A stretch of DNA of 64,000 nt, taken from positions 310,001 to 374,000 of the forward strand of contig JASCNX010000001.1 in assembly GCA_029968055.1 (NCBI GenBank), written 5' to 3'. This stretch comes from Xenophilus aerolatus (GTDB taxonomy: Bacteria > Pseudomonadota > Gammaproteobacteria > Burkholderiales > Burkholderiaceae_C). The first letter of the stretch is position 1, and the number at the start of each line of letters is the position of its first letter. Made by a program: the position numbers and the translations under genes. This document shows positions 5,612 to 25,021 of this stretch, in pieces. The notes under the pieces are model-generated. The model was not told the origin of the DNA and ran no database searches. It saw nothing but the letters and a program-made list of their open reading frames with translations.

Positions 5612-5671
5612 TGGGCCGGCCACGTGGCGGTTTCCAGAATGCCGGCATCGACATTCCCCCGGAGCGCAGCC

Positions 5672-6715
5672 ATGATCCACGGCGACATTTCAAGCAGCAA
5701 GGACACCGTCGGCGTCGCCGTCGTCAACTACAAGATGCCGCGCCTGCACACGCGCGCCGAGGTGCTGGCCAACGCGAAGCAGATCGCCGACATGGTGGTC
5801 GGCATGAAGTCCGGCCTGCCGGGGCTGGACCTGGTGATCTTTCCCGAGTACAGCACGCACGGGATCATGTACGACAGCGCCGAGATGTACGAGAACGCGG
5901 CCAGCGTGCCGGGCTTCGAGACGGAGATCTTCGCGCAGGCCTGCCGCAAGGCCAAGGTGTGGGGCGTGTTCTCGCTCACCGGCGAGCGCCACGAGGAGCA
6001 CCCGAACAAGGCGCCGTACAACACCCTGATCCTCATGAACGACCAGGGCGAGATCGTCCAGAAGTACCGCAAGATCATGCCCTGGGTGCCGATCGAGGGC
6101 TGGTATCCGGGCAACTGCACCTACGTGAGCGAGGGCCCCAAGGGCCTGAAAATCAGCCTCATCATCTGCGATGACGGCAACTACCCCGAGATCTGGCGCG
6201 ACTGCGCGATGAAGGGCGCCGAGCTGATCGTGCGCTGCCAGGGCTACATGTACCCGGCCAAGGAACAGCAGATCCTCATCAGCAAGGCCATGGCCTTCGC
6301 CAACAACGTGTACGTGGCGGTGGCCAATGCGAGCGGCTTCGACGGCGTGTACTCGTACTTCGGCCACTCGGCGCTGATCGGCTTCGACGGCCGCACGCTG
6401 GGCGAATGCGGCGAGGAGGAAATGGGCGTGCAGTACGCCGCCCTGTCCAAGAGCCTGATCCGCGACTTCCGCAAGAACGGGCAGAGCGAGAACCACCTCT
6501 TCAAGCTGCTGCACCGCGGCTACACCGGCGTCATCAATTCGCGCGAAGGCGACAAGGGCGTGGCCGACTGTCCCTATTCCTTCTATGGCAAGTGGGTGTC
6601 CGACCCGGAGGGCACGCGGGAGATGGTCGAGTCCTTCACGCGCAGCACCGTGGGCACGGCCGAGGCGCCGATCGAGGGCATCCCGAACGAAGAGACGGCC
6701 AACCTGCACCGCTGA
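5672..6715 (+). CDS. amiE: Aliphatic amidase
   Basis: This 347-residue nitrilase-superfamily enzyme hydrolyses short aliphatic amides to acid plus ammonia. The protein aligns along its length with Pseudomonas AmiE, beginning MIHGDISSS and containing [14 protein letters not shown]. The catalytic triad is in place: Glu59 (VIFPEY), Lys134 (KYRK) and Cys166 (IICDDGN). Trp138 is kept, but the next residue is Val139, where the Pseudomonas enzyme, as I recall it, has Cys. The ATG at 5672 is chosen because the protein starts exactly where the family does; upstream in-frame sequence belongs to the LysR gene. A MoxR-like ATPase gene follows after 25 bp. Confidence 0.96.
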
Positions 6716-6740
6716 CCCGCACCGCTGACAGAGCGCCGGC

Positions 6741-7544
6741 ATGGACGCCCACGACCCGTTGCATGCCTGGCGCATCGCGCAGGAGCCGTTCTACCGGGCC
6801 GTGGGCGACGAATGCGCCCGCTTCGAGGCCGCGTGGTCGCGGCGCCTGCCACTGCTGCTGAAGGGCCCGACCGGCTGCGGCAAGACCCGTTTCGTCGAGC
6901 ACATGGCCTGGCGGCTGGGCCGGCCCCTGGTCACCGTGGCCTGCCACGAGGACACCGGCGCCGGCGACCTGGTGGGCCGCTGGCTGCTCGACGCCGACGG
7001 CACGCGCTGGCAGGACGGGCCGCTGGCCCTGGCCGCCCGGCACGGTGCCATCTGCTACCTCGACGAACTGGCCGAGGCGCGACCGGAGACGGCCGTCGCC
7101 ATCCACCCGCTCACCGACACCCGGCGCATGCTGCCGCTGGAGCGGCGGGGCGAGCTGCTGCGGGCGCATCCGGACTTCATGCTGGTGGTGTCCTTCAACC
7201 CCGGCCACGGCAGCCGCCTGCTGCGCAGTGCGACGCGCCAGCGCTTCTGCGGCCTCGCCTTCGACCACCCGCAGGCCGAGGACGAGGCGCAGATCCTCAT
7301 GCACGAGGTGGGCATCGACGTCGAGCTGGCCAGCGCCCTGGTCGCATTGGGGCGGCGCTCGCGCCGGCTGGCGGGGCAGGGGCTGGAGGAGGGCGCGTCG
7401 ACACGCATGCTGGTGCGCGCGGCGGAACTGGTGCGCGCCGGCATGGCGCCGCGCGAGGCCTGCCGCATGGCGCTGGTGGCGCCGCTGACCGACGACGCCA
7501 CGCTGTCCGAGGCGCTGGCCGCGGCCATCGATGCCTCCTTCTGA
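6741..7544 (+). CDS. MoxR-type AAA+ ATPase of the NorQ/NirQ/CbbQ family
   Basis: This 267-residue AAA+ ATPase has Walker A GPTGCGKT (residues 42-49), Walker B ICYLDE (about 104-109) and the NorQ/CbbQ-type segment HPDFMLVVSFNPGH. Known relatives form hexamers that, with a VWA partner, remodel or activate a client enzyme (NO reductase for NorQ, Rubisco for CbbQ). Here the only enzyme gene upstream on the same strand is amiE, 25 bp away, and the VWA gene overlaps downstream, so the client may be an amidase. That is inference. Neither nor nor cbb structural genes are present in the window. Confidence 0.92.
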   Translation: MDAHDPLHAWRIAQEPFYRAVGDECARFEAAWSRRLPLLLKGPTGCGKTRFVEHMAWRLGRPLVTVACHEDTGAGDLVGRWLLDADGTRWQDGPLALAARHGAICYLDELAEARPETAVAIHPLTDTRRMLPLERRGELLRAHPDFMLVVSFNPGHGSRLLRSATRQRFCGLAFDHPQAEDEAQILMHEVGIDVELASALVALGRRSRRLAGQGLEEGASTRMLVRAAELVRAGMAPREACRMALVAPLTDDATLSEALAAAIDASF

Positions 7545-9129
7545 CGTGCTGGCTGCCGCGCCGGGCCACGCGGTCCTGGCGCCTTACCTGCGGCTGCTGT
7601 GGAACATCGCGCCACCGATCCATGCGCCGGTGCTCGGTATGGATGCCGATGCGGCGCCCTTCCTGAGCGAACAGGGGCTGCACCTGCCGCCGCCGCCGCC
7701 CGGGCTCGAGGGCGCCGACGCCGCCGCGTGGCAGCGCGCCGCCGCGGCGCATGCGGCCGCGCATCTGGTGTTCTCGCGGCGCCTGTTCGGGCGCGCCGGC
7801 GTGGCGCCCGTCACACAGGCGCTGGTCGACGTGCTGGAGGATGCGCGCGTCGAGGCCCTGGCGCGGCGCGCGCTGCCGGGGCTGCGTGGGCTGTGGATGC
7901 GCTGGCACACCGCATCGCCTGCCGACGGCCAGGGCTTCGCGGCCCTGCTGGCGCGGCTGGCGCGCGCGCTGGCCGACCCCGGCTACGACGACCCGCACCC
8001 CTGGGTGCGCAAGGGGCGGTCGCTCTTCTTCCTCGATTCGGCGGGCGAGGTCGTCTCGCCGGCGCAGGGGCTGGCGCTGCGGCGCATGGCCTCCGCGCTC
8101 GGGCACGACCTCGGGCAGATGCGCATGGCCTTCGACCCGCGCACGCACCGCATCGTGCCCTCGTACCGCGACGACAACCGCTGGCTGTGGCTGGCGCCGG
8201 AGCAGGAGCAGGCGGCGCGGCCCCCCGGAGCGTCGCCATCGGCCCGGGACGAACGTGCGCCGGATGCCGGGCTCGTGCCGCCCGAGCGCGTGTACCCCGA
8301 GTGGGATGCGCGCATCGGCCGGCTCCGGGCGTCGTGGTGCGAGGTGCGCGAGCGCCGGCCGCCGCCGGCCGCTGCGCGTGCGCCTGCGGCACAGCCCGCG
8401 GGGCTGCAGGCAGCCCTGGTCGCCATGCTGCGCCGCCTGGCCCGCGCGCCGTCGCGCCGGGCGGGTCTGCGAGCGATGGACGGCGAGGGCTTCGACCTCG
8501 ACGCGGCCATCGATGCCGCGGCTGCGCGTCGGCATCGGCTGCCCTTCGATCCCCGCGTGCACCGTCGCCCGGCCACGGCGCCCGGTGGCGGTGCCGCCTT
8601 CCTGCTGATCGACACCTCGGCCTCGAGCGAGGCCAGCCTGCCGCTGGCCCTGGCCGCCGCCGAGGCGTTGGCGCAAGCGCTCGGCGACGCGGGCTGGTGC
8701 GTGACGGTGCAGGGCTTCGAGTCGGAGGGCCGCCGTGCCGTGACGCTGTGGCGGGTGCTCGATGCCGGCGAGCGTTGGGACGATCACGCGCGGGGCCGCC
8801 TGCACGCGCTGCGCGCGGCGCACTCCACGCGGCTGGGCGCGGCCTTGCGCCATGCCATCGACCTGCTGGCGCAGTGTCCGGCGTCACGGCGCATGCTGTG
8901 GCTGCTGGGGGATGCCGATGCGCACGACATCGACATCCACGAGCCCGGCTACCTTGCCGCCGACGCGCGCCACGCGGTGCAGGCGGCGCAGCAGCAGGGC
9001 ATCGGCATGCGTGCGCTGGTCTGTGCCGACGACGATGGCAGCGCCGCGGCGCGCATCTTCGGCCCCGGCGGCTGGGCACGGGTGCGCAGCCTGGAGGAGC
9101 TTCCGCACGTGCTGGGCGGGGGTGCCTGA
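7531..9129 (+). CDS. NorD/CbbO-type von Willebrand factor A domain protein
   Basis: This 532-residue protein has a long N-terminal region and a C-terminal VWA domain with a MIDAS motif DTSAS at about residues 361-365. Near the C-terminus the block HDIDIHEPGYLAADAR matches the NorD/CbbO signature. VWA partners of MoxR ATPases act as adaptors that bind the client protein through the metal site. Its start overlaps the ATPase gene by 14 bp, so the two are translationally coupled. It is the last gene of the apparent amiE operon. The middle (about residues 225-320) is rich in Ala/Pro/Arg and probably a flexible linker. Confidence 0.9.
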   Translation: MPPSDVLAAAPGHAVLAPYLRLLWNIAPPIHAPVLGMDADAAPFLSEQGLHLPPPPPGLEGADAAAWQRAAAAHAAAHLVFSRRLFGRAGVAPVTQALVDVLEDARVEALARRALPGLRGLWMRWHTASPADGQGFAALLARLARALADPGYDDPHPWVRKGRSLFFLDSAGEVVSPAQGLALRRMASALGHDLGQMRMAFDPRTHRIVPSYRDDNRWLWLAPEQEQAARPPGASPSARDERAPDAGLVPPERVYPEWDARIGRLRASWCEVRERRPPPAAARAPAAQPAGLQAALVAMLRRLARAPSRRAGLRAMDGEGFDLDAAIDAAAARRHRLPFDPRVHRRPATAPGGGAAFLLIDTSASSEASLPLALAAAEALAQALGDAGWCVTVQGFESEGRRAVTLWRVLDAGERWDDHARGRLHALRAAHSTRLGAALRHAIDLLAQCPASRRMLWLLGDADAHDIDIHEPGYLAADARHAVQAAQQQGIGMRALVCADDDGSAAARIFGPGGWARVRSLEELPHVLGGGA

Positions 9130-9162
9130 GGCGCTGCTTCCATCGAGAACACGGGCACCATG

Positions 9163-9188
9163 AAAAAAGCCGTCCCGAAGGACGGCTT
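9163..9188 (-). terminator. Intrinsic terminator of icd
   Basis: On the minus strand GCCGTCC, loop TTCG, GGACGGC is followed by six T residues. The 7-bp GC-rich stem with a UUCG tetraloop is a strong Rho-independent terminator, 33 bp after the isocitrate dehydrogenase stop. Flanking A/T pairs make it partly usable for the convergent VWA gene too. Confidence 0.9.
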
Positions 9189-9220
9189 GGTGTTCGCGCG
9201 CGACGCGCGGCGGACGGGAC

Positions 9221-11458
<2,238 letters not shown>

Positions 11459-11725
11459 GGCGCTGGATGTCCTTGGGAAGATGGTGAACGGAACGGGCCG
11501 GCGGGCATTGTCGCGCCGAATGCGGCGCGGGCCGGCGCGCGGGGCCGGCGGCGGCAACCGTGAAGTATGCCGCGCTGCTGTCGCGGCCGTGTCCGTCCGA
11601 CCGGTCGTCGCAGGGCCGCGGTCGGATTTCGGAGCCCGGCCGAACCGCGGCATTCGCTCGGCCGGCGCAAGGCGCTATGAAAAACATAGCGCGGGCGACC
11701 GCCGGACGGGGCGGCGCCCCTGCCG
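11459..11725. other. Gene-free gap upstream of icd
   Basis: This 267-bp gap separates the end of the biotin carboxylase gene from the icd start. Apart from the palindrome at 11672-11692, nothing resembling a gene or clear terminator was found. The icd promoter must lie here, but no convincing -35/-10 pair was picked out in this GC-rich sequence. Confidence 0.6.
11672..11692. repeat. 21-bp perfect palindromic element
   Basis: GCGCTATG, AAAAA, CATAGCGC form two perfect 8-bp arms around an A5 spacer. It lies 33 bp before the biotin carboxylase stop side and about 214 bp upstream of icd (both minus strand). No T-run follows on either strand, so it is not a typical intrinsic terminator. Elements of the GCTAT-A/T-rich-ATAGC type are, to my recollection, frequent between genes in Comamonadaceae; that is not verified here. 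Confidence 0.6.
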
Positions 11726-13453
11726 TCAGCCGATGCGCGCGATCACGCTGCCCGACGCCGCGTGCTGTCCGGCCTCGGCCTGGCGCGTGAGGCGCCCGCT
11801 GCGGTGCGCCGGCACCTGCATCTCCATCTTCATGGCCTCCATGACCGCGATGGTCTCGCCCTCGGCCACCTCGGCGCCGTCGTCCACCTTCCAGGCCTGC
11901 AGCGTGCCGGCGATCGGTGCCGTAACGGCCGCGGGGTCGGCGGCCGGCGCGTCCTGCGCCGGCGCGGCAGCGCCCGGTGCGCCGGCGGCCAGGCCGCGCA
12001 ACAGCACCGCCGGCAGGCCCAGCGCGACGCGCCGGCCGTCGATCTCGATGGCCGTGCGCTGCAGCGGCTCGGCAGCCGCCGGCTCGGCCCGCATGGCGGC
12101 GGCCAGCGGCTCGGCGAAGTCGGTCTCGATCCAGCGGGTGTGGACCCTGAAGGCGTCGGCACCGACGAAGTCCGGCTGCTGGAGCACGGCGCGGTGGAAG
12201 GGCAGCACCGTGGGCAGGCCCTCGATGCGGAACTCCGCCAGCGCGCGCCGCGCCCGGGCCAGCGCCTGTTCGCGGGTGGCGCCGGTCACGATCAGCTTGG
12301 CCATGAGCGAGTCGAAGCTGCCCGGTACCACGGCACCCGCGTACACGCCGCTGTCCACGCGCACGCCGGGGCCGGCCGGGGGCTCGAACAGGTCGACCGG
12401 CCCGGGCGCGGGCAGGAAGCCGCGGCCCACGTCCTCGGCATTGATGCGGAACTCGATCGCATGGCCGCGCGGCACCGGCGTTTCGCGCAGCGTGAGCGGC
12501 AGGCCGTCGGCCACGCGCAACTGCTCGATCACGAGGTCGAGCCCGCAGGTTTCCTCGGTCACCGGGTGCTCGACCTGCAGCCGCGTGTTCACTTCCAGGA
12601 ACGAGATCGCGCCCGAGGCGCTGAGCAGGAACTCGACCGTGCCGGCGCCGACGTAGCCGGCCTCGGCGCAGATGTCGCGCGCGGCGGTGTGGATGCGCGC
12701 GCGCTGGTCGTCGCCGAGGAACGCGGCCGGGGCCTCCTCCACCAGCTTCTGGTTGCGCCGCTGCAGCGAGCAGTCGCGCGTGCCCAGCACCAGCACCTGG
12801 CCGTGCGTGTCGGCGATCACCTGCGCCTCGATGTGGCGCGGCTTGTCGAGGAACTGCTCGACGAAGCATTCGCCGCGGCCGAAGGCGGTGACTGCCTCGC
12901 GCACCGCCGATTCGTAGAGTTCGGCCACCTCGTCCATCCGCCATGCGATCTTCATGCCGCGCCCGCCGCCGCCGAAGGCCGCCTTGATGATGATGGGCAG
13001 GCCATGCTGCCGCGCGAAGGCCTCGACCTCGGCGGCGTTCTTCACCGGGTCGGCGGTGCCCTCGACCAACGGCGCGCCCACCTTCAGTGCGATGCGCCGC
13101 GCCTCGACCTTGTCGCCCAGTCGCGCGATGGCCGAAGGCGGCGGGCCGATCCAGGTGAGGCCGGCGTCGATCACGGCCTGGGCGAAGCCGGCGTTCTCGG
13201 ACAGGAAGCCGTAGCCGGGGTGCACCGCATCGGCGCCGCTGCGGCGGGCCACATCGAGCAGCTTGTCGATGGCCAGGTAGGTATCGGCGGGGCGGTGGCC
13301 CTGCAGCCCCCAGGCCTCGTCGGCCACGCGTGCGTGCAGGGCATCGATGTCGGGGTCGGCATACACGGCCACCGACTGCACGCCGTAGTCGGCGCAGGCA
13401 CGGGCGATGCGCACGGCGATCTCGCCGCGGTTGGCGATCAGGACTTTCTTCAT
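11726..13453 (-). CDS. Biotin carboxylase fused to biotin carboxyl carrier domain (urea-carboxylase/AccC-like)
   Basis: This 575-residue protein starts [20 protein letters not shown] and has a complete biotin carboxylase ATP-grasp module (residues about 1-450). A C-terminal biotinyl domain carries the biotin attachment motif EAMKM (Lys near residue 541). It therefore carboxylates its own biotin using ATP and bicarbonate. It is the last gene of the operon, 7 bp after pxpBC. Urea carboxylase joins the same parts (BC, AHS1, AHS2, BCCP) in one chain, so here they seem to be split over two genes. No carboxyltransferase of the acyl-CoA type is adjacent, making an acyl-CoA carboxylase less likely. 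Confidence 0.9.
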
Positions 13454-13460
13454 GATGTGT

Positions 13461-15122
13461 TCAGCGTGAGAGATCGATGGGCTCGAAGCCCGCCACGACC
13501 TGGAAGCGGATGCGGGCGCCGACGGGGATCTGCCCCGCCAGGTCCAGATGCCACGGCGCGATGCAGCCGATGACGGGGTAGCCGCCGGTGAGCGGGTGGT
13601 CGGCCAGGAAGAGCACCGGCTGGCCGTTGGCCGGCACCTGGATCGCGCCCAGGGCCGTGCCTTCGCTGGGCAGTTCGCGCGTGACGGCCCGGACGAGGGG
13701 TTCGGCGCCCTGCACGCGCAGGCCGACGCGGTTGGACTGTGGCGTCACGGTCCATTCCTGCGCGCCGAGCAGCGCCACTGCCTCGGGCGTGAACCAGTCG
13801 GTGCGCGGGCCGAGCAGGACGTCGAGCGCGACGAGATCGCCGGGCCGCGGCAACTCGGCCGGCGGCGCATCGGGTTCGCCCACGGCGCACAGGCCCCGGG
13901 CCGCGCGCACGGGCAGCACGTCGCCCGCGGCCAGCGGCGCGGGGCCGACCTGGGCCAGCGTGTCGAAAGCGAGGCTGCCCATGACCGGTGCACGGTCGAT
14001 GCCGCCGCGCAGCGCGATGTAGCTGCGTACGCCGGCCTCGGGCTCGCCGATGTGCAGGCGGTCGCCATCGCCCAGCGCCACGGGCGCGTGGCGGGGCACG
14101 GGCCAGCTGCGCCCGTCGGGGGCGGTGAGCGTCAGCGCGCCGGCGGCGCCGGTCACCGCCACCACCGTGTCGCCCAGGCTCTGCAGTTCGAAGCCGCCCT
14201 GGGCCACCTCGATGCAGGCGCAGTCGGCGGAGTTGCCCACCAGCCGATTGGCGGCGCGCAGCGCGCTGCGGACCATGGCGCCGGACATCGACACGCCCTG
14301 GCCGGCCTGGCCGGGGCGGCCCATGTCCTGCAGCAGGCCCTGCAGGCCGGGCCTGCGGACCGCCAGGGCCGGACCATGGACCTGCGGCGTGGCGGCTTCG
14401 GCAGCAGGCGCTGCGGTGGCCGGGGCGAGGGCGGGGCGCGCGCCGGCGTCGACGAAGCGCACGCGCTGGCCGGGCTGCAGCAGGGCGGGCGGGTCCCGGT
14501 CGAGGTCCCACATGGCCACGGGCGTCTGGCCCAGGATCTGCCAGCCGCCGGGGCTGGCCTTGGGATAGACGCCGCTGAAGCCGCCGGCCACCGCCACCGC
14601 GCCGGGCGGGATGCGCGTGCGCGGCGAGGTGCGGCGCGGCACCCGGTGCAGCCCTTCGTCGCCGCCCGTCAGGTAGGCGAAGCCGGGCGCGAAGCCGGAG
14701 AAGGCCACAAACCAGTCGGTGCCGGTGTGGCGGCGCACCACCTCCTGCGTCGTGATCTGCAGCAGCTCGGCGACTTCGGCGAGGTCCTCGCCGTCGTAGT
14801 ACACCGGCAGCTCCACGCGCGCGCCGGCCTCGGACTGGCGCAGGGCGAGCGGGCGCGTGGCCAGCTCGGCGGCCAGGGCTGCGCGGTCGGTGCGCAACGG
14901 GTCGAAATCGATCAGCAGGGTGCGCGCGCCGGGCACGATCTCGACCACGCCCGGGATCGAGCGCTCCTGCAGCGAGGCCAGCAGGCCCAGCGTCTGGGGC
15001 AGGTCCTCGAGTTCGACCAGCACGGTGGACCGGCCGGCGGGCAGCACGCGCATGGTGGCGCCGGCGCGCGCCGGCGCGACTTCGGTGGGCGCCGCCTGCG
15101 GGGCCGCGGGGCGGGCGCTCAT
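13461..15122 (-). CDS. pxpBC: 5-oxoprolinase subunits B and C fused (AHS1-AHS2, KipI-KipA)
   Basis: This 553-residue fusion has an N-terminal AHS1/KipI domain (about 25-235, with [21 protein letters not shown]) and a C-terminal AHS2/KipA domain (about 250-545, with [16 protein letters not shown] and [15 protein letters not shown]). A linker rich in Ala and Pro joins them near residues 240-255. PxpB and PxpC with PxpA form the ATP-dependent bacterial 5-oxoprolinase. The ATG at 15122 overlaps the upstream stop in an ATGA, supporting this start over longer frames. The same two domains occur in urea carboxylase, so a related cyclic or linear amide is possible. Confidence 0.92.
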
Positions 15123-15934
15123 ACGTGGTACGTGCTGTCGGGCACGTCGGTGATGAACATGTAGCCCGGCGCGTGGGTCACGGCGAAGGGCACGCCCGAG
15201 GCCATCACCGCGGCCTGCGGCGTGACGCCGCAGGCCCAGAACACCGGCACCTCGCCGGGCTCGATGCGCACCGGGTCGCCGAAGTCGGGCCGGCCCAGGT
15301 CGGCGATGCCCAGCGCCTGCGGGTCGCCCACGTGCACCGGCGCGCCGTGCACCGACGGAAAGCGCGCCGAGATGGCGACCGCGTCGGCCACGCGGTGGGC
15401 GGGGATCGGCCGCATCGACACCACCAGCTCGCCGTGCAGGCGGCCCGCCGGCCGGCAGGCGCGCGCGGTGCGATACATGGGCACGTTGCAGCCTTGCGTG
15501 ATGTGGCGCACCTCGATGCCGGCCTCCTGCAGCGGCGTCTCGAAGGTGAAGCTGCAGCCGATGAGGAAAGTGACCAGGTCGGGATGCTCGGCCCACAGCG
15601 CGGTGGCGTCGGCCACTTCCTCGGCCAGCCGGCCGTCGCGCCAGACGCGGTAGCGCGGGATGTCGGTGCGCACGTCCGCGCCCTCGGCCAGCACGGTGCG
15701 GTGCTGGCCGGCCTCGATCACGTCGAGCACCGGGCAGGGCTTGGGGTTGCGCTGTGCATAGAGCAGGAAGTCCCAGGCCCAGTCGCGCGGCAGCGCGATC
15801 ATGTTGGCCTGCGTCATGCCCGGTGCCACGCCGGCGGTGGGTTCGGCGCGGCCGGCGCGGTAGGCCTCGCGCGCGGCGCGGGCGGCCTGGACCGCGTGCG
15901 TGCGCGCCGCGGCGGTGGAAAGCGGGAAGCTCAT
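15119..15934 (-). CDS. Putative hydro-lyase, D-glutamate cyclase family (DUF1445/YcsI), copy 1
   Basis: This 271-residue cytoplasmic protein contains the family block [15 protein letters not shown] and the conserved [11 protein letters not shown] and [11 protein letters not shown] segments. The family includes B. subtilis YcsI, linked to kipI/kipA, and the DUF1445 part of mammalian D-glutamate cyclase, which interconverts D-glutamate and 5-oxo-D-proline. GAGGA precedes the ATG at 15934. It lies between pxpA and pxpBC and overlaps the latter by 4 bp. A paralogue sits two genes upstream; the two share motifs but differ clearly along the sequence. Confidence 0.9.
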
Positions 15935-15983
15935 GGAACGGATTCCTCGGAAAACGGATTCGGGCCGGCGCGCACCCGCAGGT

Positions 15984-16739
15984 TCAGGCGAAGGCACGCA
16001 GCCCGACGCCGGCGTCGTGCAGCACGCGCCGCAGTTCGGCCGCCATCGCAACGGCGCCGGCGCTGTCGCCGTGCACGCAGATCGACTCGGCCTCGACCCG
16101 CGTGAGGCTGCCGTCGATGGCCTCGACCACGCCCTCGCGCACCAGGCGCAGCATGCGCGCGGCCACCTGCGCCGGGTCGTGCAGCACCGCGCCGGGTTGG
16201 CCGCGCGGCACCAGCGTGCCCTGGGCCGTGTAGGCGCGGTCGGCAAAGGCTTCGGACACCACGCGCAGGCCCGCCTCGCGGGCCCAGCCGACCAGCGGCG
16301 AGCCGGCCAGCGCGACCAGCGCCAGCTCGGGGTCGGCGGCGCGGATGGCGGCGATCACGTCGCGCGCCTGCCGCGCATCGTGCGCGATGGTGTTGTAGAG
16401 CGCACCGTGCGGCTTGACGTAGCGCACGCGTGCACCGGTGGTGGCGGCCAGGCCGCGCAGGGCGCCGATCTGGTAGATCACGCCGGCCACGAGGTCGGCG
16501 CTGGCGATGTCCATCGCGCGCCGCCCGAAGCCGACCAGGTCGGGGTAGGCCACGTGCGCGCCGACGGCCACGCCGCGCGCGGCCGCCGCCTTCAGCGTGG
16601 CGAGGATGCCGGCCGGGTCGCCCGCGTGGAAGCCGCAGGCCACGTTGGCGCTGGTCACGATGTCGAGCATGGCGTCGTCGTCGCCCATGCGCCAGGCGCC
16701 CAGGCTTTCGCCGAGGTCGCTGTTGAGGTCGATGTTCAT
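15984..16739 (-). CDS. pxpA: 5-oxoprolinase subunit A (LamB/YcsF family)
   Basis: This 251-residue protein has the full PxpA/YcsF pattern: [49 protein letters not shown] and ESICVHGD. Family members have a polysaccharide-deacetylase-like barrel and, with PxpB/PxpC, cleave 5-oxoproline to glutamate using ATP. Length is typical. It sits between the two DUF1445 hydro-lyase genes, 13 bp after the upstream one and 49 bp before the next, inside the long minus-strand operon. Confidence 0.95.
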
Positions 16740-16752
16740 GGCAGGTGCGCGG

Positions 16753-17547
16753 TCAGAAGGCCGCGAGTTCGCTGTTGCGCACGTCGGCCACGAGCATGTA
16801 GCCCGGCTTGTGCGTGATGGCCAGCGGCGGCCGCGCCACGCGGATGGCCTGCTGCGGCGTCACGCCGCAGGCCCAGAAGACGGGGATCTCGCCCTCGCGC
16901 ACTTCGGACGGCGTGCCGTAGTCGGGCCGCGCGAGGTCGGCGACGCCGATGGCGGCCGGGTCGCCGAAGTGCACCGGCGCGCCGTGCACCGCCGGAAAGC
17001 GCGAGGTGACCTGGATGGCGCGGATGGCCTGCGCCGGCGTCATCGGCCGCATGCTGACCACCATGGTGCCGCCGAAGCGGCCGGCGCGGCCGTTGGGCAG
17101 GCGGGTGTCGTACATGGGCACCGGGTGGTCGTGCTCGATGTGGCGCACCGGCACGCGGGCATCGAGCAGCGCCGCCTCGAAGGACAGCGAGCAGCCCAGC
17201 ACGAAGCCGACCAGGTCGTCCTGCCAGAGCGTGCGCAGGTCGGCCACTTCCTCCACCAGTTCGCCGTCGCGGAAGACGCAGTAGGCGGGCACGTCGTGCC
17301 GCAGGTCGATGTCGGCCCCGAGTTCGGGCACGCGCGGGTCGCCCGGCTCGGTCATGCCGATGACGGGGCAGGCCTTGGGGTTCAGGCGGCAGAAGCGCAG
17401 GAACTCGTCGGCATAGGCGCGCGGCAGGATGGCCAGGTTGCCCTGGGCGTAGCCGGGCGCTTGGCCGGCCGTGTGGCCGCGGAATTCCTTGCGGCGGATG
17501 GCCCGGCGCAGGTCGCCGGGCTCTTGCCAGATGTGGGGAAGCGACAT
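16753..17547 (-). CDS. Putative hydro-lyase, D-glutamate cyclase family (DUF1445/YcsI), copy 2
   Basis: This 264-residue paralogue of the copy at 15119-15934 has [29 protein letters not shown] and [10 protein letters not shown] in corresponding places. The ATG at 17547 is preferred because GAGGA lies 6 bp before it; a GTG at 17559 is also in frame. It follows livF by 8 bp and precedes pxpA by 13 bp. Two diverged copies in one operon suggest two related substrates, for instance the D and L series of glutamate/5-oxoproline. That is a guess from context. Confidence 0.9.
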
Positions 17548-17555
17548 GGCCGTCC

Positions 17556-18252
<697 letters not shown>

Positions 18253-18263
<11 letters not shown>

Positions 18264-19026
18264 GGTGGCGGTCTCCGAGGTAGGCGGCCACGACGGCCGG
18301 ATCGCGCACCACGTCGCGCGGCGCGCCCTGGCTGAGCACGCGCCCGAGGTTGAGCACGATGGCCCGGTCGACCAGGGGCATGACGATCTCCATCACGTGC
18401 TCGACCATGATGACGGTGATGCCGCGGTCGCGGATGCGGCGGATGAGCTCGACGCCCTTGCGGGCCTCGCTGGGCGTGAGGCCGGTCATCACCTCGTCCA
18501 GCAGCAGCAAGCGCGGCTCGGTGGCCAGCGCGCGCGCCACTTCGAGCCGGCGCTTCTCGGGCGGCGTGAGGTCGCCGGCCGGGGCCGCGGCGCGGCCGAT
18601 GATGCCGGTGAACTCCAGCACCTCGAGCGCGGCCTCGCGGGCGGCGGCGGCGCGGGCGTGGCGCGTGAAGCTGCCCACCATCACGTTGTCCAGCACGCTC
18701 ATGCTGTCGAAGGAGCGCGGCACCTGGTAGGTGCGGGCGATGCCCAGGGCACAGCGTGCCGGCGCGTCCAGCCGCGTGACGTCGCGGCCCTCGAACACGA
18801 CCCGGCCCTGCACCGGCGCACGCGCGCCGGCGATGATGCCGAACAGCGTGGACTTGCCCGCGCCGTTGGGGCCGATGAGGCCCAGGATCTGGCCGCGGGG
18901 CACGTCGAAGGTGACCTCGGCGTTGGCCACCAGGCCTCCGAAGCGCTGCCAGATGTCGGTCAGCTGAAGAATGGGCGCCTCGGTGGCCGGCGCAACCGCC
19001 TGCCGGGCGTCGTTGGCGGCGTTCAT
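18253..19026 (-). CDS. livG: LivG-type ABC transporter ATPase
   Basis: This 257-residue ATPase has Walker A GPNGAGKS (about 52-59), Walker B LLLLDEVMTG and H-loop IMVEHVMEI. The signature region reads LTPPEKRRLEVARA instead of the common LSYGxQRRLEIARA, so the canonical LSGGQ-like motif is weak; pairing with LivF's normal LSGGE would leave one degenerate composite site. The ATG at 19026 overlaps the livM stop (ATGA). It has a short N-terminal extension of about 18 residues before the ABC domain. Confidence 0.92.
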
Positions 19027-20057
19027 GCGGCACCTGCCTTGCGGCGCAGGCCGCCGAACAGGCCGATCAGGCCTTCGGGCTTGAGCACCGCCACACCCAT
19101 GACGAGCGCGCCGTAGACGATCAGGTCGGTGCCGGTGCCCGAGCCGCCCATGTAGCTGCGGATGGCCTCGGTCAGCGGGATCAGGATCACCGCGCCGAGG
19201 AGCGGCCCCCACAGGGTGCCGATGCCGCCCAGCACGACGGGCAGGACCATCAGCAGCGAGAAGCGGAAGTGCATGACGCTGTCGGGGTCGATGTAGGCCA
19301 CGAAGGCCGCATAGAAGCCGCCCGCGATCGCCGTCAGGCTGGCCGACAGGGCGGCGGCCGCCATCTTGGAGCGGAACACCGTCACGCCCAGGCTCTCGCT
19401 GGCTTCGGGGTTGTCCTTGACGGCGCGCCACCAGTAGCCCCAGCGCGAGCCCTCGACCCAGAAGGTGATCAGCCAGGTGAGCGCGAACAGGCCCAGCACG
19501 AAGTAGAAGTACGGCGCCTTGTCGCGCGCGAACTGCAGCGTGGCCCAGCTGTCAGGGCCCAGCGGCCACTGGATGCCCATGGCGGCGCCCACGTAGTCCC
19601 AGTTGTGCACCAGCAGCAGCCCGATCTCGGCGATCACCAGCGTGGCGATGGCGAAGTAGTGGCCCTTCAGGCGAAAGCACAGCCAGCCCAGCAGCAGTGC
19701 CAGCACCGCGGCGAGCACCGCGCCGGCCACCATGCCGAACCAGGGCAGCACGCCGAAGTTCACGAACAGCACGCTGGTGGTGTAGGCCCCGGCACCGAAG
19801 TACAGCGCGTGGCCCAACGAGATCTGGCCGCAGTAGCCGCCCAGGATGTTCCAGGCCTGCGCCAGCGCGGCGTACATGAGGGTGAGGATCAGGATGTTGC
19901 GCAGGTAGGCGTCGCCCACCAGCAGCGGCACGGCGGCCAGCAGCGCCAGCACGACGGCACCCGTCAGCAGCTGACGGCGCCGCTGCGCGGCATGGGCCTG
20001 CAGCGCACCCGAGGCCGGCGCATCGCCGGCCGGAACAGCAATCGCTGCGTCGGTCAT
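19023..20057 (-). CDS. livM: LivM-type ABC transporter permease
   Basis: This 344-residue inner-membrane permease has a hydrophilic N-terminus of about 30 residues and then multiple membrane segments (from LLTGAVVLALLAAVPLL on). The GQISLGHALYFGAGAY motif of LivM proteins lies near residue 80. It pairs with LivH. The start ATG at 20057 shares one base with the livH stop (TGATG). It belongs to the importer of the pxp operon. Confidence 0.94.
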   Translation of the reverse strand: MTDAAIAVPAGDAPASGALQAHAAQRRRQLLTGAVVLALLAAVPLLVGDAYLRNILILTLMYAALAQAWNILGGYCGQISLGHALYFGAGAYTTSVLFVNFGVLPWFGMVAGAVLAAVLALLLGWLCFRLKGHYFAIATLVIAEIGLLLVHNWDYVGAAMGIQWPLGPDSWATLQFARDKAPYFYFVLGLFALTWLITFWVEGSRWGYWWRAVKDNPEASESLGVTVFRSKMAAAALSASLTAIAGGFYAAFVAYIDPDSVMHFRFSLLMVLPVVLGGIGTLWGPLLGAVILIPLTEAIRSYMGGSGTGTDLIVYGALVMGVAVLKPEGLIGLFGGLRRKAGAA

Positions 20058-20935
20058 CAGAGTCTCCCGAAAAGGCCGCTGGGTCGCAGCAGCACCACCA
20101 GCAGGTACAGGGCATACACGCCCACGGTCTTGAGCGATGCGGGCAGCACCAGGGTGGTCATGGCCTCGATCAGGCCCACCACCACGCCGCCCACCAGCGC
20201 GCCGAACACGCTGCCGAAGCCGCCCAGGGCGACCACGACATAGGCGATGCCGCTGAAGGCGCCGCCCACCTGCGGATGGATGTAATAGAAGTTGGCCAGC
20301 ATGGCGCCCGCCACGCCCACCATCGCCAGGCCCAGGCCCCAGCCGAGGGCGAAGACGCGGTTGCGGTCGATGCCCACCAGCGCCACGGCGCCCTGGTCCT
20401 CGCGCGTGGCTTCCAGCGCGCGGCCGAAATCGGTGCGCGACATCAGCAGGTACAGCCCGCCGAAGGCCAGCAGCGAAACCACCGCGCCGGCGATCTGCGG
20501 CTGCGGCAGGAAGACGCCGCCGATCTCCACCGTCTTGTTGGCCAGCCAGCTGTTGCTGATCTGGCGGTAGTCGGGCGTGAAGAAGTACTGGGCCAGGCCC
20601 TGCATCAGGGTGCCGAGGCCGAAGGTGGAGAAGATCTGCACCATGCCCACGTTGGCCTTGGCCCGCATGGCATGGCGCACGATCAGCAGGTACACCAGCA
20701 CGCCGGCCATGAACAGCACCGCGCCCACCAGCGGCATGCCGATGAGCGGGTCCAGGTGCAGGCCCACGGCCAGGCCGAAGGTGAGGTACATGCCCATCAT
20801 CAGGAACTCGCCGTGGGCGAAGTTCACGACGTCCATCAGCCCGAAGATGAGCGACAGGCCGACGGCGATGAGCGCATACATGAGCCCCATCAGCACGCCG
20901 CTGGCGAGCACCTGCGCGATTGCTTGCGCGTTCAT
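20057..20935 (-). CDS. livH: LivH-type ABC transporter permease
   Basis: This 292-residue permease has the LivH pattern: ALIAVGLSLIFGLMDVVNFAHGEFLMMG in the first third and GALVGGVVVGLIEA near the end, with about eight membrane segments. The ATG at 20935 begins where the family does; the open frame continues upstream through the binding-protein gene but in the wrong register. The gap to the solute-binding protein gene is 14 bp. Confidence 0.94.
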   Translation of the reverse strand: MNAQAIAQVLASGVLMGLMYALIAVGLSLIFGLMDVVNFAHGEFLMMGMYLTFGLAVGLHLDPLIGMPLVGAVLFMAGVLVYLLIVRHAMRAKANVGMVQIFSTFGLGTLMQGLAQYFFTPDYRQISNSWLANKTVEIGGVFLPQPQIAGAVVSLLAFGGLYLLMSRTDFGRALEATREDQGAVALVGIDRNRVFALGWGLGLAMVGVAGAMLANFYYIHPQVGGAFSGIAYVVVALGGFGSVFGALVGGVVVGLIEAMTTLVLPASLKTVGVYALYLLVVLLRPSGLFGRL

Positions 20936-20949
20936 GGCGTCGTCCCGGC

Positions 20950-22197
20950 TCAGCCGTTCATCGGCCACACGGGCTGGGCCATGGCCACCGCCGTGGGGAA
21001 GACGGTGACGAAGCCCGTGCCCTTGAACTGCTGCAGCACGGGGCTGGCAAAGGTGTTCTGGCCGCTGGCATCGAACTTGACGCGCGCCCAGGGCATGATG
21101 GTCTTCTCGCCCGGGATGTCGGTCGCTGCGAGTGCCGCACGCAGCTTCTCGCCGTCGGTGGAGCCGGCGCGCTGCAGTGCGTCGGCCAGCACGATGGCGG
21201 CCATGAACTGGCGCGAGCTGGCATCGTTGAGGTCGCGGCCCGCGCGGGCCTTGAAGGCCGCGTCGACGAAGGCGATGGAGGGGCGCTTGCCGGCGGTGTC
21301 CAGCGCGAAGCTGGCGCGGGTGATCATGCCCTGCAGCTTGTCGCCCACCACGTCGAGCGCGGCCTTCTCGACGAAGCCGGCGGCCTGCGCAACGACGTTG
21401 CGCGGCTTGTAGCCCAACTGCGTGCAGGTGTTCATCAGCAGGATGACGTCGGTGGTGTAGCACGAGGGCAGCAGCACGTCGGCATTGGCGGACTTGAGCT
21501 GCTGCACCTCGGCCGACAGCGAAGGCGAGTTGGCGCGGAACTTGACGTCCGCCGCCACCTTGTAGCCGCGCTCGGCGGCCAGCTTGCGCTGCACGGTGGA
21601 CGAGTCGGTACCGAAGATGGTGTCTTCGAAGAACAGGGCCACGGTCTCGACCTTCTTGCCCTGCTTCTTCTGCAGGTCCATGAAGTCGAACATCGCCTCG
21701 GAGAACATCTCGTCGTGCGCGGCCGGGCGGAAGAAGGTCTTGAGGTTGCGGCGGTGCAGGCTGGGCGAGGAGGAGTCCGCGCACACGAAGGGCACGCCGT
21801 AGCGCTCGCAGGTGGTGCCGACGGTGGCGGCCACCGAGGAGTGGAAGCAGCCGATGATGGCCACGGCCTTCTCCTGCGTGATAAGGCGCTCGGCCTCGGC
21901 GCGGCCCTTCTGCGGGTCGGCCTGGTGGTCGGCATAGACGACGCGCAGCTTGCGGTTGCCCAGGCTGGCGATGCCGGCAGCGGCGGCACCCGGCAGATCG
22001 ACCTGCGTGGGGGTGTTGATGATCTGCAGCGCCGTGTCGATGGCGTGGCGCGCATCCACGCCCACCTGGGCGTTGGGCCCGCTCATGGGGTAGATGGCCC
22101 CCACCACGATGTCGTCATCGGCGGCCCAGCTGGGCGACGCGGCCATCGCCAGCGCGCTCAGGCTGGCCATCTGCATCAGGATTTCTCTGCGGTTCAT
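20950..22197 (-). CDS. LivK-type solute-binding protein, first gene of the transport/pxp operon
   Basis: This 415-residue periplasmic type I binding protein has a signal MNRREILMQMASLSALAMAA with cleavage likely after PSWA, then DIVVGAIYPMSGPNAQVG. GAGGAG before the ATG at 22197 supports this start over an upstream one at 22290. It is longer than E. coli LivK and resembles the amide/urea/aromatic-binding branch. It heads the ten-gene operon and is divergent from a GntR gene across a palindromic operator, so its ligand is probably also the regulator's signal. Confidence 0.92.
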   Translation of the reverse strand: MNRREILMQMASLSALAMAASPSWAADDDIVVGAIYPMSGPNAQVGVDARHAIDTALQIINTPTQVDLPGAAAAGIASLGNRKLRVVYADHQADPQKGRAEAERLITQEKAVAIIGCFHSSVAATVGTTCERYGVPFVCADSSSPSLHRRNLKTFFRPAAHDEMFSEAMFDFMDLQKKQGKKVETVALFFEDTIFGTDSSTVQRKLAAERGYKVAADVKFRANSPSLSAEVQQLKSANADVLLPSCYTTDVILLMNTCTQLGYKPRNVVAQAAGFVEKAALDVVGDKLQGMITRASFALDTAGKRPSIAFVDAAFKARAGRDLNDASSRQFMAAIVLADALQRAGSTDGEKLRAALAATDIPGEKTIMPWARVKFDASGQNTFASPVLQQFKGTGFVTVFPTAVAMAQPVWPMNG

Positions 22198-22305
22198 CAG
22201 CAACTCCTCAAAAGTGGATCGGTATCGGGGTGACGGCGCCGCGTCGGCGGCGACAGGTCGGACGTTTTGGTCATGCAAAACGCATGCCATGAATCAACAA
22301 AAAAA

Positions 22306-22345
22306 GTTGTTCAGATCAACAAAGAACAATGAATTGTTGAACAAC
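22306..22345. promoter_or_regulatory. FadR-type GntR operator region
   Basis: GTTGTTCA at 22306-22313 and its exact reverse complement TGAACAAC at 22338-22345 bracket the region. Inside, TTGTTGAACAA at 22334-22344 fits the FadR-subfamily consensus TnGTnnnACnA exactly, and TTGTT, six bases, AACAA at 22307-22322 is a second candidate half-site pair. The site lies between the divergent binding-protein and GntR genes, in the only AT-rich part of the gap, so it should control the ten-gene operon and probably the regulator itself. Confidence 0.65.
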
Positions 22346-22456
22346 ATTGGCGCATGAACGCTTGGGGTTTGCCCTGCACCGGTGCGCATTCGGGTCGCCG
22401 TGGTGCATCGGACCCGCGGCAGGCAATCTGCTACAAACCGGCGACACGGACCCTCC

Positions 22457-23146
22457 ATGACTGCTGCCCCTGCCGACCTGCCCGCCCCGCCGCTGAGTGA
22501 ACGCGTGGCCGAACAACTGCGCCAGAAGATCACCGCGGGCGAATTCCAGCCCGGCCAGCGGCTGTCGGAACAGGCGCTGAGCGATCACCTGGGCATCTCG
22601 CGCAATACGCTGCGCGAGGTGTTCCGCGTGCTGACCAAGGACGGCCTGCTGCGCCACGAACCCAACCGGGGCGTGTTCGTGTCGGTGCCGAGCATCGCGG
22701 CCATCATCGACATCTACCGGGTGCGGCGTCTGATCGAGTGCCAGGCCCTGGCCCAGGCCTACCCGCGGCACCCGGCCAAGAAGCGCATGCGCGAAGCGGT
22801 CGACGCGGCGTTGCGCGCGCGGGAGGCCGGCGACTGGCTGGGCGTGGGCACGGCCAACATGGCCTTCCACATGGGCATCGTGCAGTTGGCGGACAGCGAG
22901 AGGCTGAACCTGCTGTTCGAGCAGGTGCTGGCCGAACTGCGTCTGGCCTTCGGGCTGCTGCGCGACCCGGAGTTTCTGCACGCGCCCTACGTGGACATGA
23001 ACCGGAGCATCCTGGAACTGGCCGAGTCCGGCGACTTTGCCCGGGCGTCCTCGGCGCTGAACGACTACCTGGTGCATTCGGAGCGCATCGTGCTGGCCGT
23101 GTATGCACGGCAACTGGGCGACGGAACCCTGGGCGCCGGCAAATAG
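22457..23146 (+). CDS. GntR-family (FadR subfamily) transcriptional regulator
   Basis: This 229-residue regulator has an N-terminal winged HTH (residues about 12-78: LSERVAEQLRQKI, GQRLSEQALSDHLGISRNTLREVF) and an all-helical FCD ligand domain. The ATG at 22457 is preferred over an in-frame upstream ATG at 22382, because the domain starts a few residues after it. It is divergent from the livK-to-biotin-carboxylase operon and a perfect FadR-type palindrome lies between them, so it most likely represses that operon until its ligand appears. Confidence 0.92.
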   Translation: MTAAPADLPAPPLSERVAEQLRQKITAGEFQPGQRLSEQALSDHLGISRNTLREVFRVLTKDGLLRHEPNRGVFVSVPSIAAIIDIYRVRRLIECQALAQAYPRHPAKKRMREAVDAALRAREAGDWLGVGTANMAFHMGIVQLADSERLNLLFEQVLAELRLAFGLLRDPEFLHAPYVDMNRSILELAESGDFARASSALNDYLVHSERIVLAVYARQLGDGTLGAGK

Positions 23147-23589: not shown

Positions 23590-24033
23590 TTATTTCGCGA
23601 AGAGTCGCGCGATGTCCTTGAAGGCCTTGATTTCCATTGCGTTGCCTGCCGGGTCCATAAAAAACATGGTGGCCTGTTCGCCGACTTCGCCCTTGAACCG
23701 GACATACGGTTCGATCACGAATTCGACGCCTGCGCCACGCAGCCGGTCGGCCATGTCCTGCCACTGGGCCATGGGCAGAACGATGCCGAAGTGCCGCACC
23801 GGAACGCCGTGGCCGTCCACCGCATTGCGCTGGGCGGCACCGCACTCGCCGGGTGCCAGATGCGCCACGATCTGGTGGCCGTAGAAGTTGAAGTCCACCC
23901 ACTCGTCGGAACTGCGGCCCTCGGGGCAGCCCAGCAGATCGCCATAGAAGCTGCGGGCCTTGGCCAGGTCATCCACCGGGAAGGCCAGGTGGAAGGGAGA
24001 CATCAGGGTGGGATTGGCGGTCACGTCGATCAT
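23590..24033 (-). CDS. VOC superfamily (glyoxalase/dioxygenase-like) protein
   Basis: This 147-residue protein has two beta-alpha-beta-beta-beta modules of the vicinal-oxygen-chelate fold: [23 protein letters not shown] at the start and VRHFGIVL in the second half, ending with [14 protein letters not shown]. Candidate metal ligands are His near residue 15, His near 81 and Glu in NAMEIK. The family ranges from glyoxalases to antibiotic-binding proteins, so no reaction is assigned. It is divergent from a LysR gene and has its own terminator. Confidence 0.88.
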
Positions 24034-24133: not shown

Positions 24134-25021
24134 ATGATCCGCGAACTCAAGACCTTCATTGCCGTTTCGGAGGAGGGCACCTTCGCCGGGGCCGGTCACC
24201 GGATCGGACTGACCCAGGCCGCCGTGAGCGCGCAGATGCAGCGGCTGGAAGAGCAACTGGGCCATGCCCTGTTCGATCGGGTCGGCCGCAATGCACGGCT
24301 GAATGCGCAAGGCCTGGATGCGCTGATCCAGGCGCGCGAGGTGGTGCGCCTCTTCGAGGAAATGGCCGCACAGCGCCGCAGCCGCCCACTGGGCGGCCGG
24401 GTGGTGCTGGGCGCCATCGCCTCCGCGCAGGCCATCGTGCTGCCCGGGGTGCTGGCGCGTTTCCGCGTGCGGCACCCGGGCGTGCATGTGCGCGTGGTGC
24501 CGGGGGTGTCCTTCCAACTGCTCCACCAGGTGGACGCCGGCGAGCTGGATGCGGCCATCATGATCCGGCCCGTGTTCGACCTGCAGGCCGACCTGCACTG
24601 GACGACGTTGTCCCATGAGCCTTTCCGGCTGGTGGTGCCGGCCAGCCTGCCCGCGCCGCGCGACTGGGGCGCGCTGCTGGGCACGCAACCCTTCATCCGC
24701 TATGACCGCACCTCCTTCGGCGGGCGGCTGGTGGAGCGCTTCCTGCGCGAGTCGCGCATCGCCGTGCAGGACTGCGTGGAGATCGACGATCTCGACGCCA
24801 TGGTGCGCATGGTGGCCTGCGGCATGGGCGTGGCACTGGTGCCGCAGGCCTTCGGGCGCGAGGGATGGCCTGACGGCGTGGTCGCGCTGCCGCTGGGCGA
24901 GCAGGCCTTCTTCCGCGATATCGGCCTGGTGGCGCGCAGCACCCGCACCACGAGCCCGGCGGCGCTGGACCTGGTGCGCCTGATCGAACAGGCGTACACC
25001 GGAGCGCAGGATGGCGCATGA
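24134..25021 (+). CDS. LysR-family transcriptional regulator
   Basis: This 295-residue LysR protein has an N-terminal HTH (MIRELKTFIAVSEEGTFAGA, with LTQAAVSAQMQRLEEQLG) and a standard effector domain. It is divergent from the VOC gene with 100 bp between the starts, and palindromic sequences lie just before its own ATG. It probably regulates the VOC gene. The effector is unknown. Confidence 0.92.
   Translation: MIRELKTFIAVSEEGTFAGAGHRIGLTQAAVSAQMQRLEEQLGHALFDRVGRNARLNAQGLDALIQAREVVRLFEEMAAQRRSRPLGGRVVLGAIASAQAIVLPGVLARFRVRHPGVHVRVVPGVSFQLLHQVDAGELDAAIMIRPVFDLQADLHWTTLSHEPFRLVVPASLPAPRDWGALLGTQPFIRYDRTSFGGRLVERFLRESRIAVQDCVEIDDLDAMVRMVACGMGVALVPQAFGREGWPDGVVALPLGEQAFFRDIGLVARSTRTTSPAALDLVRLIEQAYTGAQDGA

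What the first reader, a model, noticed from the sequence alone, without database searches (positions are those of the whole stretch)
11726..22197. Ten-gene operon joining a LIV-type importer, two D-glutamate-cyclase-like proteins, PxpABC and a biotin carboxylase
Ten minus-strand genes with gaps of at most 49 bp link uptake (SBP-H-M-G-F), DUF1445-PxpA-DUF1445, fused PxpBC and a BC-BCCP protein. The characterised 5-oxoprolinase PxpABC is not known to need biotin, whereas urea carboxylase uses the same AHS1/AHS2 domains with BC and BCCP. The operon may encode a biotin-dependent, carboxylation-driven amide-ring opening enzyme with its own importer, a split relative of urea carboxylase.
Basis: partly seen in the sequence, partly recalled or inferred. 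Interest (0 to 1): 0.72.

Follow-up and report, generated by a model that had tools for sequence, protein, structure and literature searches.

The report
Biotin-linked 5-oxoprolinase operon with importer
A bacterial operon pairs an importer with a 5-oxoproline-opening enzyme that appears to have its own biotin carboxylase, suggesting that these cells open a cyclic amino acid by briefly attaching carbon dioxide to it, an idea still to be tested.

Summary
The ten-gene operon is real and at the stated coordinates. It belongs to a branch of PxpABC in which a fused PxpBC is followed by a BC-BCCP protein: 79 of the best 80 named relatives (a capped list) have one, same strand and next in line; so do 7 of 7 fused copies in a genome survey, this one included. 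The same genome also has a stand-alone pxpBCA-pcp set without a carboxylase nearby. Of its six biotin carboxylases, this is the one with no classical carboxyltransferase partner. PxpBC and BC-BCCP are kin of Mycobacterium smegmatis MSMEG_0435/0436 and of AccA3, proteins that PDB entry 9YX5 (November 2025) places in one complex; each forms a well-supported clade with its counterpart. A pyroglutamyl-peptidase gene sits in 13 of the 80 operons, pointing to 5-oxoproline. Best reading: BC-BCCP carboxylates biotin, PxpBC passes the carboxyl group to the lactam, PxpA opens the ring. The physical partnership is well supported; substrate and chemistry are inferred. It is not a split urea carboxylase by descent: urea carboxylases form a separate clade, and carboxylase genes joined Pxp-type genes several times. 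New variant of a known kind.

The parts
20950..22197 (-). Periplasmic substrate-binding protein, LIV type (415 aa)
   Evidence: Pfam PF13458; nearest solved chain 8wch, Probable Leu/Ile/Val-binding protein
20057..20935 (-). LivH-type permease
   Evidence: PF02653
19023..20057 (-). LivM-type permease
   Evidence: PF02653
18253..19026 (-). LivG-type ATPase
   Evidence: PF00005, PF12399
17556..18263 (-). LivF-type ATPase
   Evidence: PF00005, PF12399
16753..17547 (-). D-glutamate-cyclase-like protein a (putative hydro-lyase)
   Evidence: PF07286, NF003969 over cut-off
15984..16739 (-). PxpA (LamB/YcsF)
   Evidence: PF03746; NF003814 365 bits vs cut-off 226; residues conserved in all groups present
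15119..15934 (-). D-glutamate-cyclase-like protein b, 51% identical to a
   Evidence: PF07286; identity
13461..15122 (-). Fused PxpB-PxpC (carboxyltransferase-type domains); the start of relatives corresponds to M24
   Evidence: PF02682 + PF02626; alignment A1; model pLDDT 85.4 matches 3opf, 3mml, 5dud, 9yx5, 3va7
11726..13453 (-). Biotin carboxylase-BCCP (575 aa), AccA3 type
   Evidence: Pfam; best PDB match AccA3, E 1.6e-221; catalytic residues intact; EAMKM biotinylation motif in the translation (motif recalled)
22382..23146 (+). Divergent GntR-family regulator
   Evidence: a GntR gene within 9 kb in 69 of 80 relatives
22198..22381 (.). Divergent control region with palindrome TTGTTGAACAA at 22334-22344
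   Evidence: the 11-mer pattern occurs once in the window

Best explanation
The operon takes up 5-oxoproline (pyroglutamate) or a close lactam and opens it to glutamate by a biotin-dependent route. Proposed steps: (1) the BC domain uses ATP and bicarbonate to carboxylate the biotin on the BCCP domain; (2) PxpBC acts as the carboxyltransferase and moves the carboxyl group to the lactam, most likely its nitrogen, as urea carboxylase does with urea (recalled); (3) PxpA hydrolyses the activated ring and the N-carboxy group leaves as CO2/bicarbonate, giving glutamate. The net reaction equals that of ATP-dependent 5-oxoprolinase, with bicarbonate acting catalytically. The D-glutamate-cyclase-like proteins may handle the D-form. 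Shown: gene content, near-invariant linkage, intact BC residues, no unpaired classical carboxyltransferase, kinship of both proteins to partners in a solved complex. Inferred: substrate, carboxyl transfer, ring opening, importer ligand.
For: Survey of two genome draws: fused 7 of 7 with BC (window included), split 14 of 84 (Fisher p 1.4e-5, but rows share ancestry). Own genome: 6 BC genes, 5 assigned to classical CT sets, this one to none. Same genome has pxpBCA-pcp with no BC nearby. PDB 9yx5 holds AccA3 and MSMEG_0435/0436. CT clade with MSMEG_0435 100/99, BC clade with AccA3 SH-aLRT 100. Pcp, same strand, about 2.1-2.4 kb before the CT_A_B domain in 13 of 80, further off in L037, and in plasmid L028. 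BC residues intact in 35 of 35 rows.
Against: No biochemistry. One relative (L115) lacks the BC gene, and the other BCs found in its genome are only 45-49% identical. No residue pattern separates BC-linked from stand-alone PxpBC over all lineages: L033 and L035 are BC-linked yet look like the stand-alone type. Pcp is not special to this branch: 6 of 72 stand-alone places have it too. In the own genome Pcp sits with the stand-alone set, and none of four genomes whose only CT_A_B protein is of this type has Pcp. 9yx5 shows binding within an acyl-CoA carboxylase complex; I saw its title and chains only, not where biotin lies.
Confidence: 0.6

Rival explanations
1. Same biotin-dependent machinery, different substrate: D-5-oxoproline, hydantoin, another lactam or a ureido compound, with the stand-alone set serving L-5-oxoproline.
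For: The genome already has a pxpBCA-pcp set; two D-glutamate-cyclase-like genes in the operon; such a gene near 34 of 80 relatives against Pcp in 13 and near 6 of 72 stand-alone places; PxpA of this branch has its own residues next to conserved ones, such as V63 beside H62, where 97% of stand-alone and 93% of other BC-linked PxpA have P; no Pcp in four genomes that have this type alone.
Against: Pcp genes in 13 of 80 related operons and near the closest LIV-type relative L037; G090, G008, G156 and G164 have this type as their only CT_A_B protein, so it could stand in for the stand-alone enzyme.
Confidence: 0.27
2. PxpABC here works like the characterised enzyme (ATP phosphorylates the lactam in PxpBC) and BC-BCCP only tunes or assists it, or serves elsewhere.
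For: PxpB and PxpC of other bacteria are assumed to phosphorylate 5-oxoproline (PMC13274462, passages); the C. glutamicum pxpTABC cluster as described there has no BC; one relative lacks BC.
Against: 79 of 80 linkage, matching clades and the solved homologous complex.
Confidence: 0.15
3. BC-BCCP is an acyl-CoA carboxylase alpha subunit that happens to sit in the operon.
For: Its closest solved relative AccA3 serves acyl-CoA carboxylases in mycobacteria (PMC11001197, passages).
Against: The classical CT sets of the genome can each be assigned a BC of their own; no CT beta gene in the operon; linkage to PxpBC is near-universal in this branch.
Confidence: 0.04
4. A split urea or guanidine carboxylase.
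For: Same CT domains as urea carboxylase; a similar cluster in Pelagibacterales has been read in print as possible urea degradation (PMC10308929, passages).
Against: Urea carboxylases form a separate clade (100) joined to other Pxp-like proteins, not to this branch; PxpA is near 78 of 80. Allophanate hydrolase genes were not searched for.
Confidence: 0.04

Closest known systems
M. smegmatis MSMEG_0435-MSMEG_0436 bound to the AccA3-containing long-chain acyl-CoA carboxylase complex (PDB 9YX5)
   Same: With TTHA0988, the nearest solved kin of PxpBC; AccA3 is the nearest solved kin of BC-BCCP; each falls in one clade with the window protein
   Different: Split PxpB and PxpC, and an AccA3 shared with acyl-CoA carboxylases, against a fused PxpBC with a BC-BCCP in one operon here
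Prokaryotic 5-oxoprolinase PxpABC (E. coli, B. subtilis, C. glutamicum)
   Same: PxpA, PxpB and PxpC homologues; GntR-type regulator next to the genes, as in C. glutamicum
   Different: E. coli pxpBCA has no BC in the 10 kb looked at; PxpBC here is fused, below the PxpB/PxpC equivalog cut-offs and in another clade than E. coli
Urea carboxylase (K. lactis 3VA7, bacterial UCA)
   Same: BC, AHS1/AHS2-type CT and BCCP domains
   Different: One long chain and a separate clade
ATP-dependent caprolactamase CapAB
   Same: Lactam opening that needs ATP and bicarbonate (PMC8453981, passages)
   Different: Another protein family (hydantoinase/oxoprolinase and acetone carboxylase type); a biotin-carboxylase-like bicarbonate site was not detected

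Membership tests
PxpABC 5-oxoprolinase | PxpA family model over cut-off | tested here: met
   NF003814 365 vs 226 bits
PxpABC 5-oxoprolinase | PxpB and PxpC equivalog cut-offs | tested here: not met
   TIGR00370 134.3 vs 145.55; NF045499 165.7 vs 500
PxpABC 5-oxoprolinase | CT_A_B domain in the clade of E. coli PxpC | tested here: not met
   E. coli lies in a different supported clade
PxpABC 5-oxoprolinase | Pyroglutamyl-peptidase gene in the cluster | tested here: inconclusive
   13 of 80 relatives plus L037 and L028; in this genome it sits with the other set
PxpABC 5-oxoprolinase | ATP-dependent hydrolysis of 5-oxoproline | not testable with these tools
   needs assay
Biotin-dependent carboxylase | BC catalytic residues | tested here: met
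   Window identical to E. coli AccC at 21 of 23 positions checked (236 and 287 differ); all 35 rows of the branch keep the 21; positions recalled from the BC literature
Biotin-dependent carboxylase | Biotin attachment motif in a BCCP domain | tested here: met
   Biotin_lipoyl 49.1 bits, EAMKM in the sequence; biotinylation itself not tested
Biotin-dependent carboxylase | Dedicated carboxyltransferase partner | tested here: inconclusive
   PxpBC is the only candidate left by the inventory; activity unknown
Urea carboxylase | Single BC-CT-BCCP chain over TIGR02712 cut-off | tested here: not met
   482.6 and 147.4 vs 1303.85 bits for the two proteins
Acyl-CoA carboxylase alpha subunit | PF01039 beta subunit partner | tested here: not met
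   none in the operon; those elsewhere in the genome can be paired with other BCs
LIV branched-chain amino acid importer | Curated cut-offs of LivF, LivG, LivH, LivM and SBP models | tested here: not met
   All five below cut-off though best matched by these families or the related Urt models; ligand unknown
D-glutamate cyclase | PF07286 domain | tested here: met
   catalytic activity not testable

The most novel reading that the evidence does not exclude
A second class of 5-oxoprolinase that never phosphorylates its substrate: carboxybiotin N-carboxylates the lactam, making N-carboxy-5-oxoproline, and PxpA opens this activated ring, with bicarbonate recycled. Carboxylation would then be a general way to open unreactive amide rings, assembled several times by joining different biotin carboxylases to Pxp-type proteins.
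Probability: 0.45. Interest if true: 0.78.

Novelty: new variant of a known kind. Interest (0 to 1): 0.6.

Why it matters
CT_A_B domains occur in 48 of 120 and 55 of 160 genomes drawn here (urea carboxylases included), yet how PxpBC works is only assumed. If one branch runs on carboxybiotin, it would explain why a carboxyltransferase fold is used to open a lactam, give meaning to vague labels (urea amidolyase family protein, biotin-dependent carboxyltransferase family protein) seen in many records, and suggest a function for the binding of MSMEG_0435/0436 to a mycobacterial carboxylase complex.

Tried and rejected
Residue signature for biotin dependence: positions 182, 195, 204-205 and 510 looked promising on group majorities but fail row by row: E. 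coli and L022 have Q195, and BC-linked L035 and L033 carry the stand-alone pattern at most of them. Dropped.

Acyl-CoA carboxylase and urea carboxylase roles were considered and put low (see rivals). Pcp as a test of substrate: of six survey genomes with this type, one has Pcp, and of the four that have no other CT_A_B protein, none; this does not help the 5-oxoproline reading.

Literature: ten searches of the open library. None of the listings or passages I saw describes a biotin-linked PxpABC enzyme, but the gene company has been noticed: a Lactiplantibacillus pentosus genome paper reports extra BCCP and BC genes and pxpB/pxpC in that species and reads the BC/BCCP as an extra acetyl-CoA carboxylase copy (PMC12427679, passages), and a rhodopsin paper mentions biotin-dependent carboxyltransferase and carboxylase genes, read as possible urea degradation, with a PxpA-like gene (PMC10308929, passages). 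Passages also seen: PMC13274462, PMC8453981, PMC11001197, PMC4617892, PMC7642360, PMC10448178; PMC4347857 held none of the terms asked. All other listed papers were seen as listings only. Most subscription papers are not held. Niehaus et al. 2017 and the urea carboxylase structure paper are not held; what I say of them is recalled. No paper behind 9YX5 was found.

Rows left out: L041 from alignment A2, because its match holds a stop codon; G123 from the survey (domain cut by the contig end); of the urea carboxylase places only 13 were fetched. Of the 80 named relatives, 26 went into the large CT tree, 22 into the BC tree and 6 into. The split-with-BC count of 14 includes L125 (beside a urea carboxylase) and L153 (falls inside the fused clade). 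The large trees are quick ones without bootstrap; one search is the careful check of the CT tree, and the BC tree had no such check. Nine of the 92 fused places have under 4 kb on one side. One search pooled all loci in one file and was redone; only the 51% identity of the two cyclase-like proteins is taken from it.
Full report
OBSERVATION. From upstream: SBP, LivH, LivM, LivG, LivF, D-glutamate-cyclase-like a, PxpA, D-glutamate-cyclase-like b, fused PxpBC, BC-BCCP. Neighbouring genes overlap by up to 11 bp or are at most 49 bp apart. Domains were confirmed with Pfam and NCBIfam. A divergent GntR-family gene lies at 22382-23146, and a monomeric isocitrate dehydrogenase gene downstream at 9221-11653.

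TWO PXP SETS IN ONE GENOME. The window's genome (5.1 Mb, 11 contigs) holds two CT_C_D/CT_A_B places and two PxpA genes. The other set, on contig 3, is pxpB-pxpC-pxpA followed by a pyroglutamyl-peptidase gene, with no BC found in the 14 kb held. So the organism has a stand-alone set and this BC-linked set side by side.

THE CARBOXYLASE HAS NO OTHER OBVIOUS PARTNER. The genome has six Biotin_carb_C matches and six PF01039 matches. Four BCs sit beside, or in one frame with, a classical carboxyltransferase (C1:1226k with C1:1228k, C7, C9, C6). The fifth (C3, 473 aa, grouping with E. coli AccC) is assigned by inference to the two weaker PF01039 matches on C4 and C1, taken as AccA and AccD. The sixth, in this operon, is left with none.

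LINKAGE. In 79 of 80 a BC lies within 6 kb, same strand in 79 of 79, the BC domain match beginning a median 54 nt after the CT_A_B match. Within 9 kb: PxpA 78 of 80, GntR 69, D-Glu_cyclase 34, NRAMP-type transporter 32, DUF969/DUF979 20, Pcp 13, LivH+LivM 2. Hosts include Burkholderiales, Pseudomonas, Enterobacterales, Rhizobiales and three Actinomycetota. The exception, L115, is a MAG in whose genome the best other BCs are 45-49% identical. In genome draws (120 of the order; 160 of the phylum; overlapping) I fetched 91 of 92 non-urea-carboxylase places; one, cut by a contig end, was left. Fused PxpBC: 7 of 7 with BC; split: 14 of 84. A count on coordinates alone, order draw only, gave 15 urea carboxylases, 9 with separate BC within 8 kb (one of them beside a urea carboxylase) and 35 without, of 59 places. 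Fused PxpBC over everything held: 91 with BC, 1 without.

THE SOLVED RELATIVE. The nearest solved chains of PxpBC are TTHA0988 and M. smegmatis MSMEG_0435/0436 (E about 1e-59 to 1e-50), ahead of E. coli YbgJK (1e-37 to 1e-31) and urea carboxylase (1e-25). The nearest solved chain of BC-BCCP is AccA3 (740 bits), then 5mlk, a very similar acetyl-CoA carboxylase chain (729), then others at 459 and below. PDB 9yx5 contains both kinds of chain and is titled 'Structure of the long chain acyl-CoA carboxylase complex from Mycobacterium smegmatis with MSMEG_0435-MSMEG_0436 bound', released 2025-11-26. I saw chains and title only. MSMEG_0435 and 0436 are listed at 2.40 and 2.17 among genes raised under nitrogen depletion (PMC4617892, passages).

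TREES. CT_A_B tree, 140 rows, quick: fused clade plus MSMEG_0435, 40 rows, support 100; all 72 split BC-less rows, among them E. coli and the own stand-alone copy, lie outside it. Careful tree, 60 rows: the same clade 100/99; urea carboxylases with one set of split BC-linked rows 98/95; other BC-linked rows (L138/L033/L163, L157, L035) elsewhere; BC presence needs 6 changes. BC tree, 70 rows, quick: 35 BCs of the branch plus AccA3 form one clade at 100; the split types L138, L033, L163, L157 and, less surely, L035 group with E. coli AccC (89-99), and the urea-carboxylase-side split types form a third group (100). The two proteins thus share their history with the mycobacterial pair, and different BC types joined Pxp-like proteins separately. 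Repeated joining is good evidence for a functional link.

RESIDUES. Of 23 BC positions checked by E. coli AccC numbering (recalled), 21 are identical in the window and in all 35 rows of the branch. PxpA residues conserved at 90% or more in each of 91 fused-type, 14 other BC-linked and 65 stand-alone rows include D8, H38, H62, D67, H111, D167, H223 and D225; the fused type has its own S7, V63 and Y107 near these in sequence. No PxpBC signature for biotin use holds over all lineages.

SUBSTRATE. Pcp releases 5-oxoproline from peptides (recalled). In 13 of 80 relatives a Pcp gene lies on the same strand about 2.1-2.4 kb before the CT_A_B domain, that is, just before PxpA in the operon. It also lies near the orthologous LIV operon L037 (about 2 kb upstream of the SBP, beside GntR) and after the BC gene in plasmid L028. 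That favours 5-oxoproline. Against: 6 of 72 stand-alone places have Pcp too; in this genome Pcp is with the other set; four genomes with this type alone have none; and two D-glutamate-cyclase-like genes might mean the D-form.

HOW IT WORKS. Best reading: BC carboxylates biotin, PxpBC transfers the carboxyl group to the lactam, PxpA opens the ring, the carboxyl group leaves. PxpB and PxpC of other bacteria are assumed to phosphorylate 5-oxoproline, with PxpA opening it (PMC13274462, passages); reconstitution from three B. subtilis proteins is recalled from Niehaus et al. 2017 (not held). Caprolactamase, of another family, also needs bicarbonate, and a carboxy ester of the lactim was one mechanism considered there (PMC8453981, passages). 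The partnership of BC-BCCP with PxpBC I hold at about 0.85; the full proposal, substrate included, at 0.6.

NOVELTY. The gene company has been noticed in print but read as extra acetyl-CoA carboxylase or urea degradation (PMC12427679; PMC10308929; passages). Ten searches of the open library showed no enzyme study.

VERDICT. A genuine, widespread branch of Pxp enzymes, with no assay found in the papers searched, that has an AccA3-type carboxylase in its operon: a new variant of a known kind.

Noticed in passing
22334-22344: Palindrome TTGTTGAACAA between SBP and GntR genes, once in the window; ATTGTTCAACAA lies in the L036 stretch 6500-6774 upstream of DUF969. Possible operator of the GntR regulator.
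   Followed up: partly
23590-24033 and 24134-25021: Glyoxalase/VOC-like protein (weak FosA match, label recalled) and LysR regulator; both also lie side by side near the orthologous operon in L037, where Pcp stands between LysR and GntR.
   Followed up: partly
60094-60226: ZMP/ZTP riboswitch on the minus strand (Rfam RF01750).
   Followed up: no
L030 (Klebsiella plasmid), 4944-6347 and 8168-14338: A BC-linked pxp operon on a Klebsiella plasmid; a second, shortened BC-BCCP copy sits beside an IS1 transposase gene. Other listed Klebsiella plasmids have the same PxpBC match, context not looked at.
   Followed up: no
L116-L119, L139, L140, L142, L145: A separate clade of split, BC-linked Pxp-like proteins on the urea carboxylase side of the tree, with a PxpA-like gene and ABC transporter genes nearby; function unknown.
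   Followed up: partly
L115: Fused PxpBC with PxpA and a D-Glu_cyclase gene but no BC-BCCP nearby: a natural test of whether this PxpBC can work with another carboxylase.
   Followed up: partly
L029:10729-11013: The D-Glu_cyclase-like gene of Paracoccus aminovorans is reduced to two end pieces, so the protein seems dispensable in some operons.
   Followed up: no
L138, L139, L145, L147: LivH/LivM-type genes near other Pxp clusters, so LIV-type importers may have joined Pxp genes more than once.
   Followed up: no
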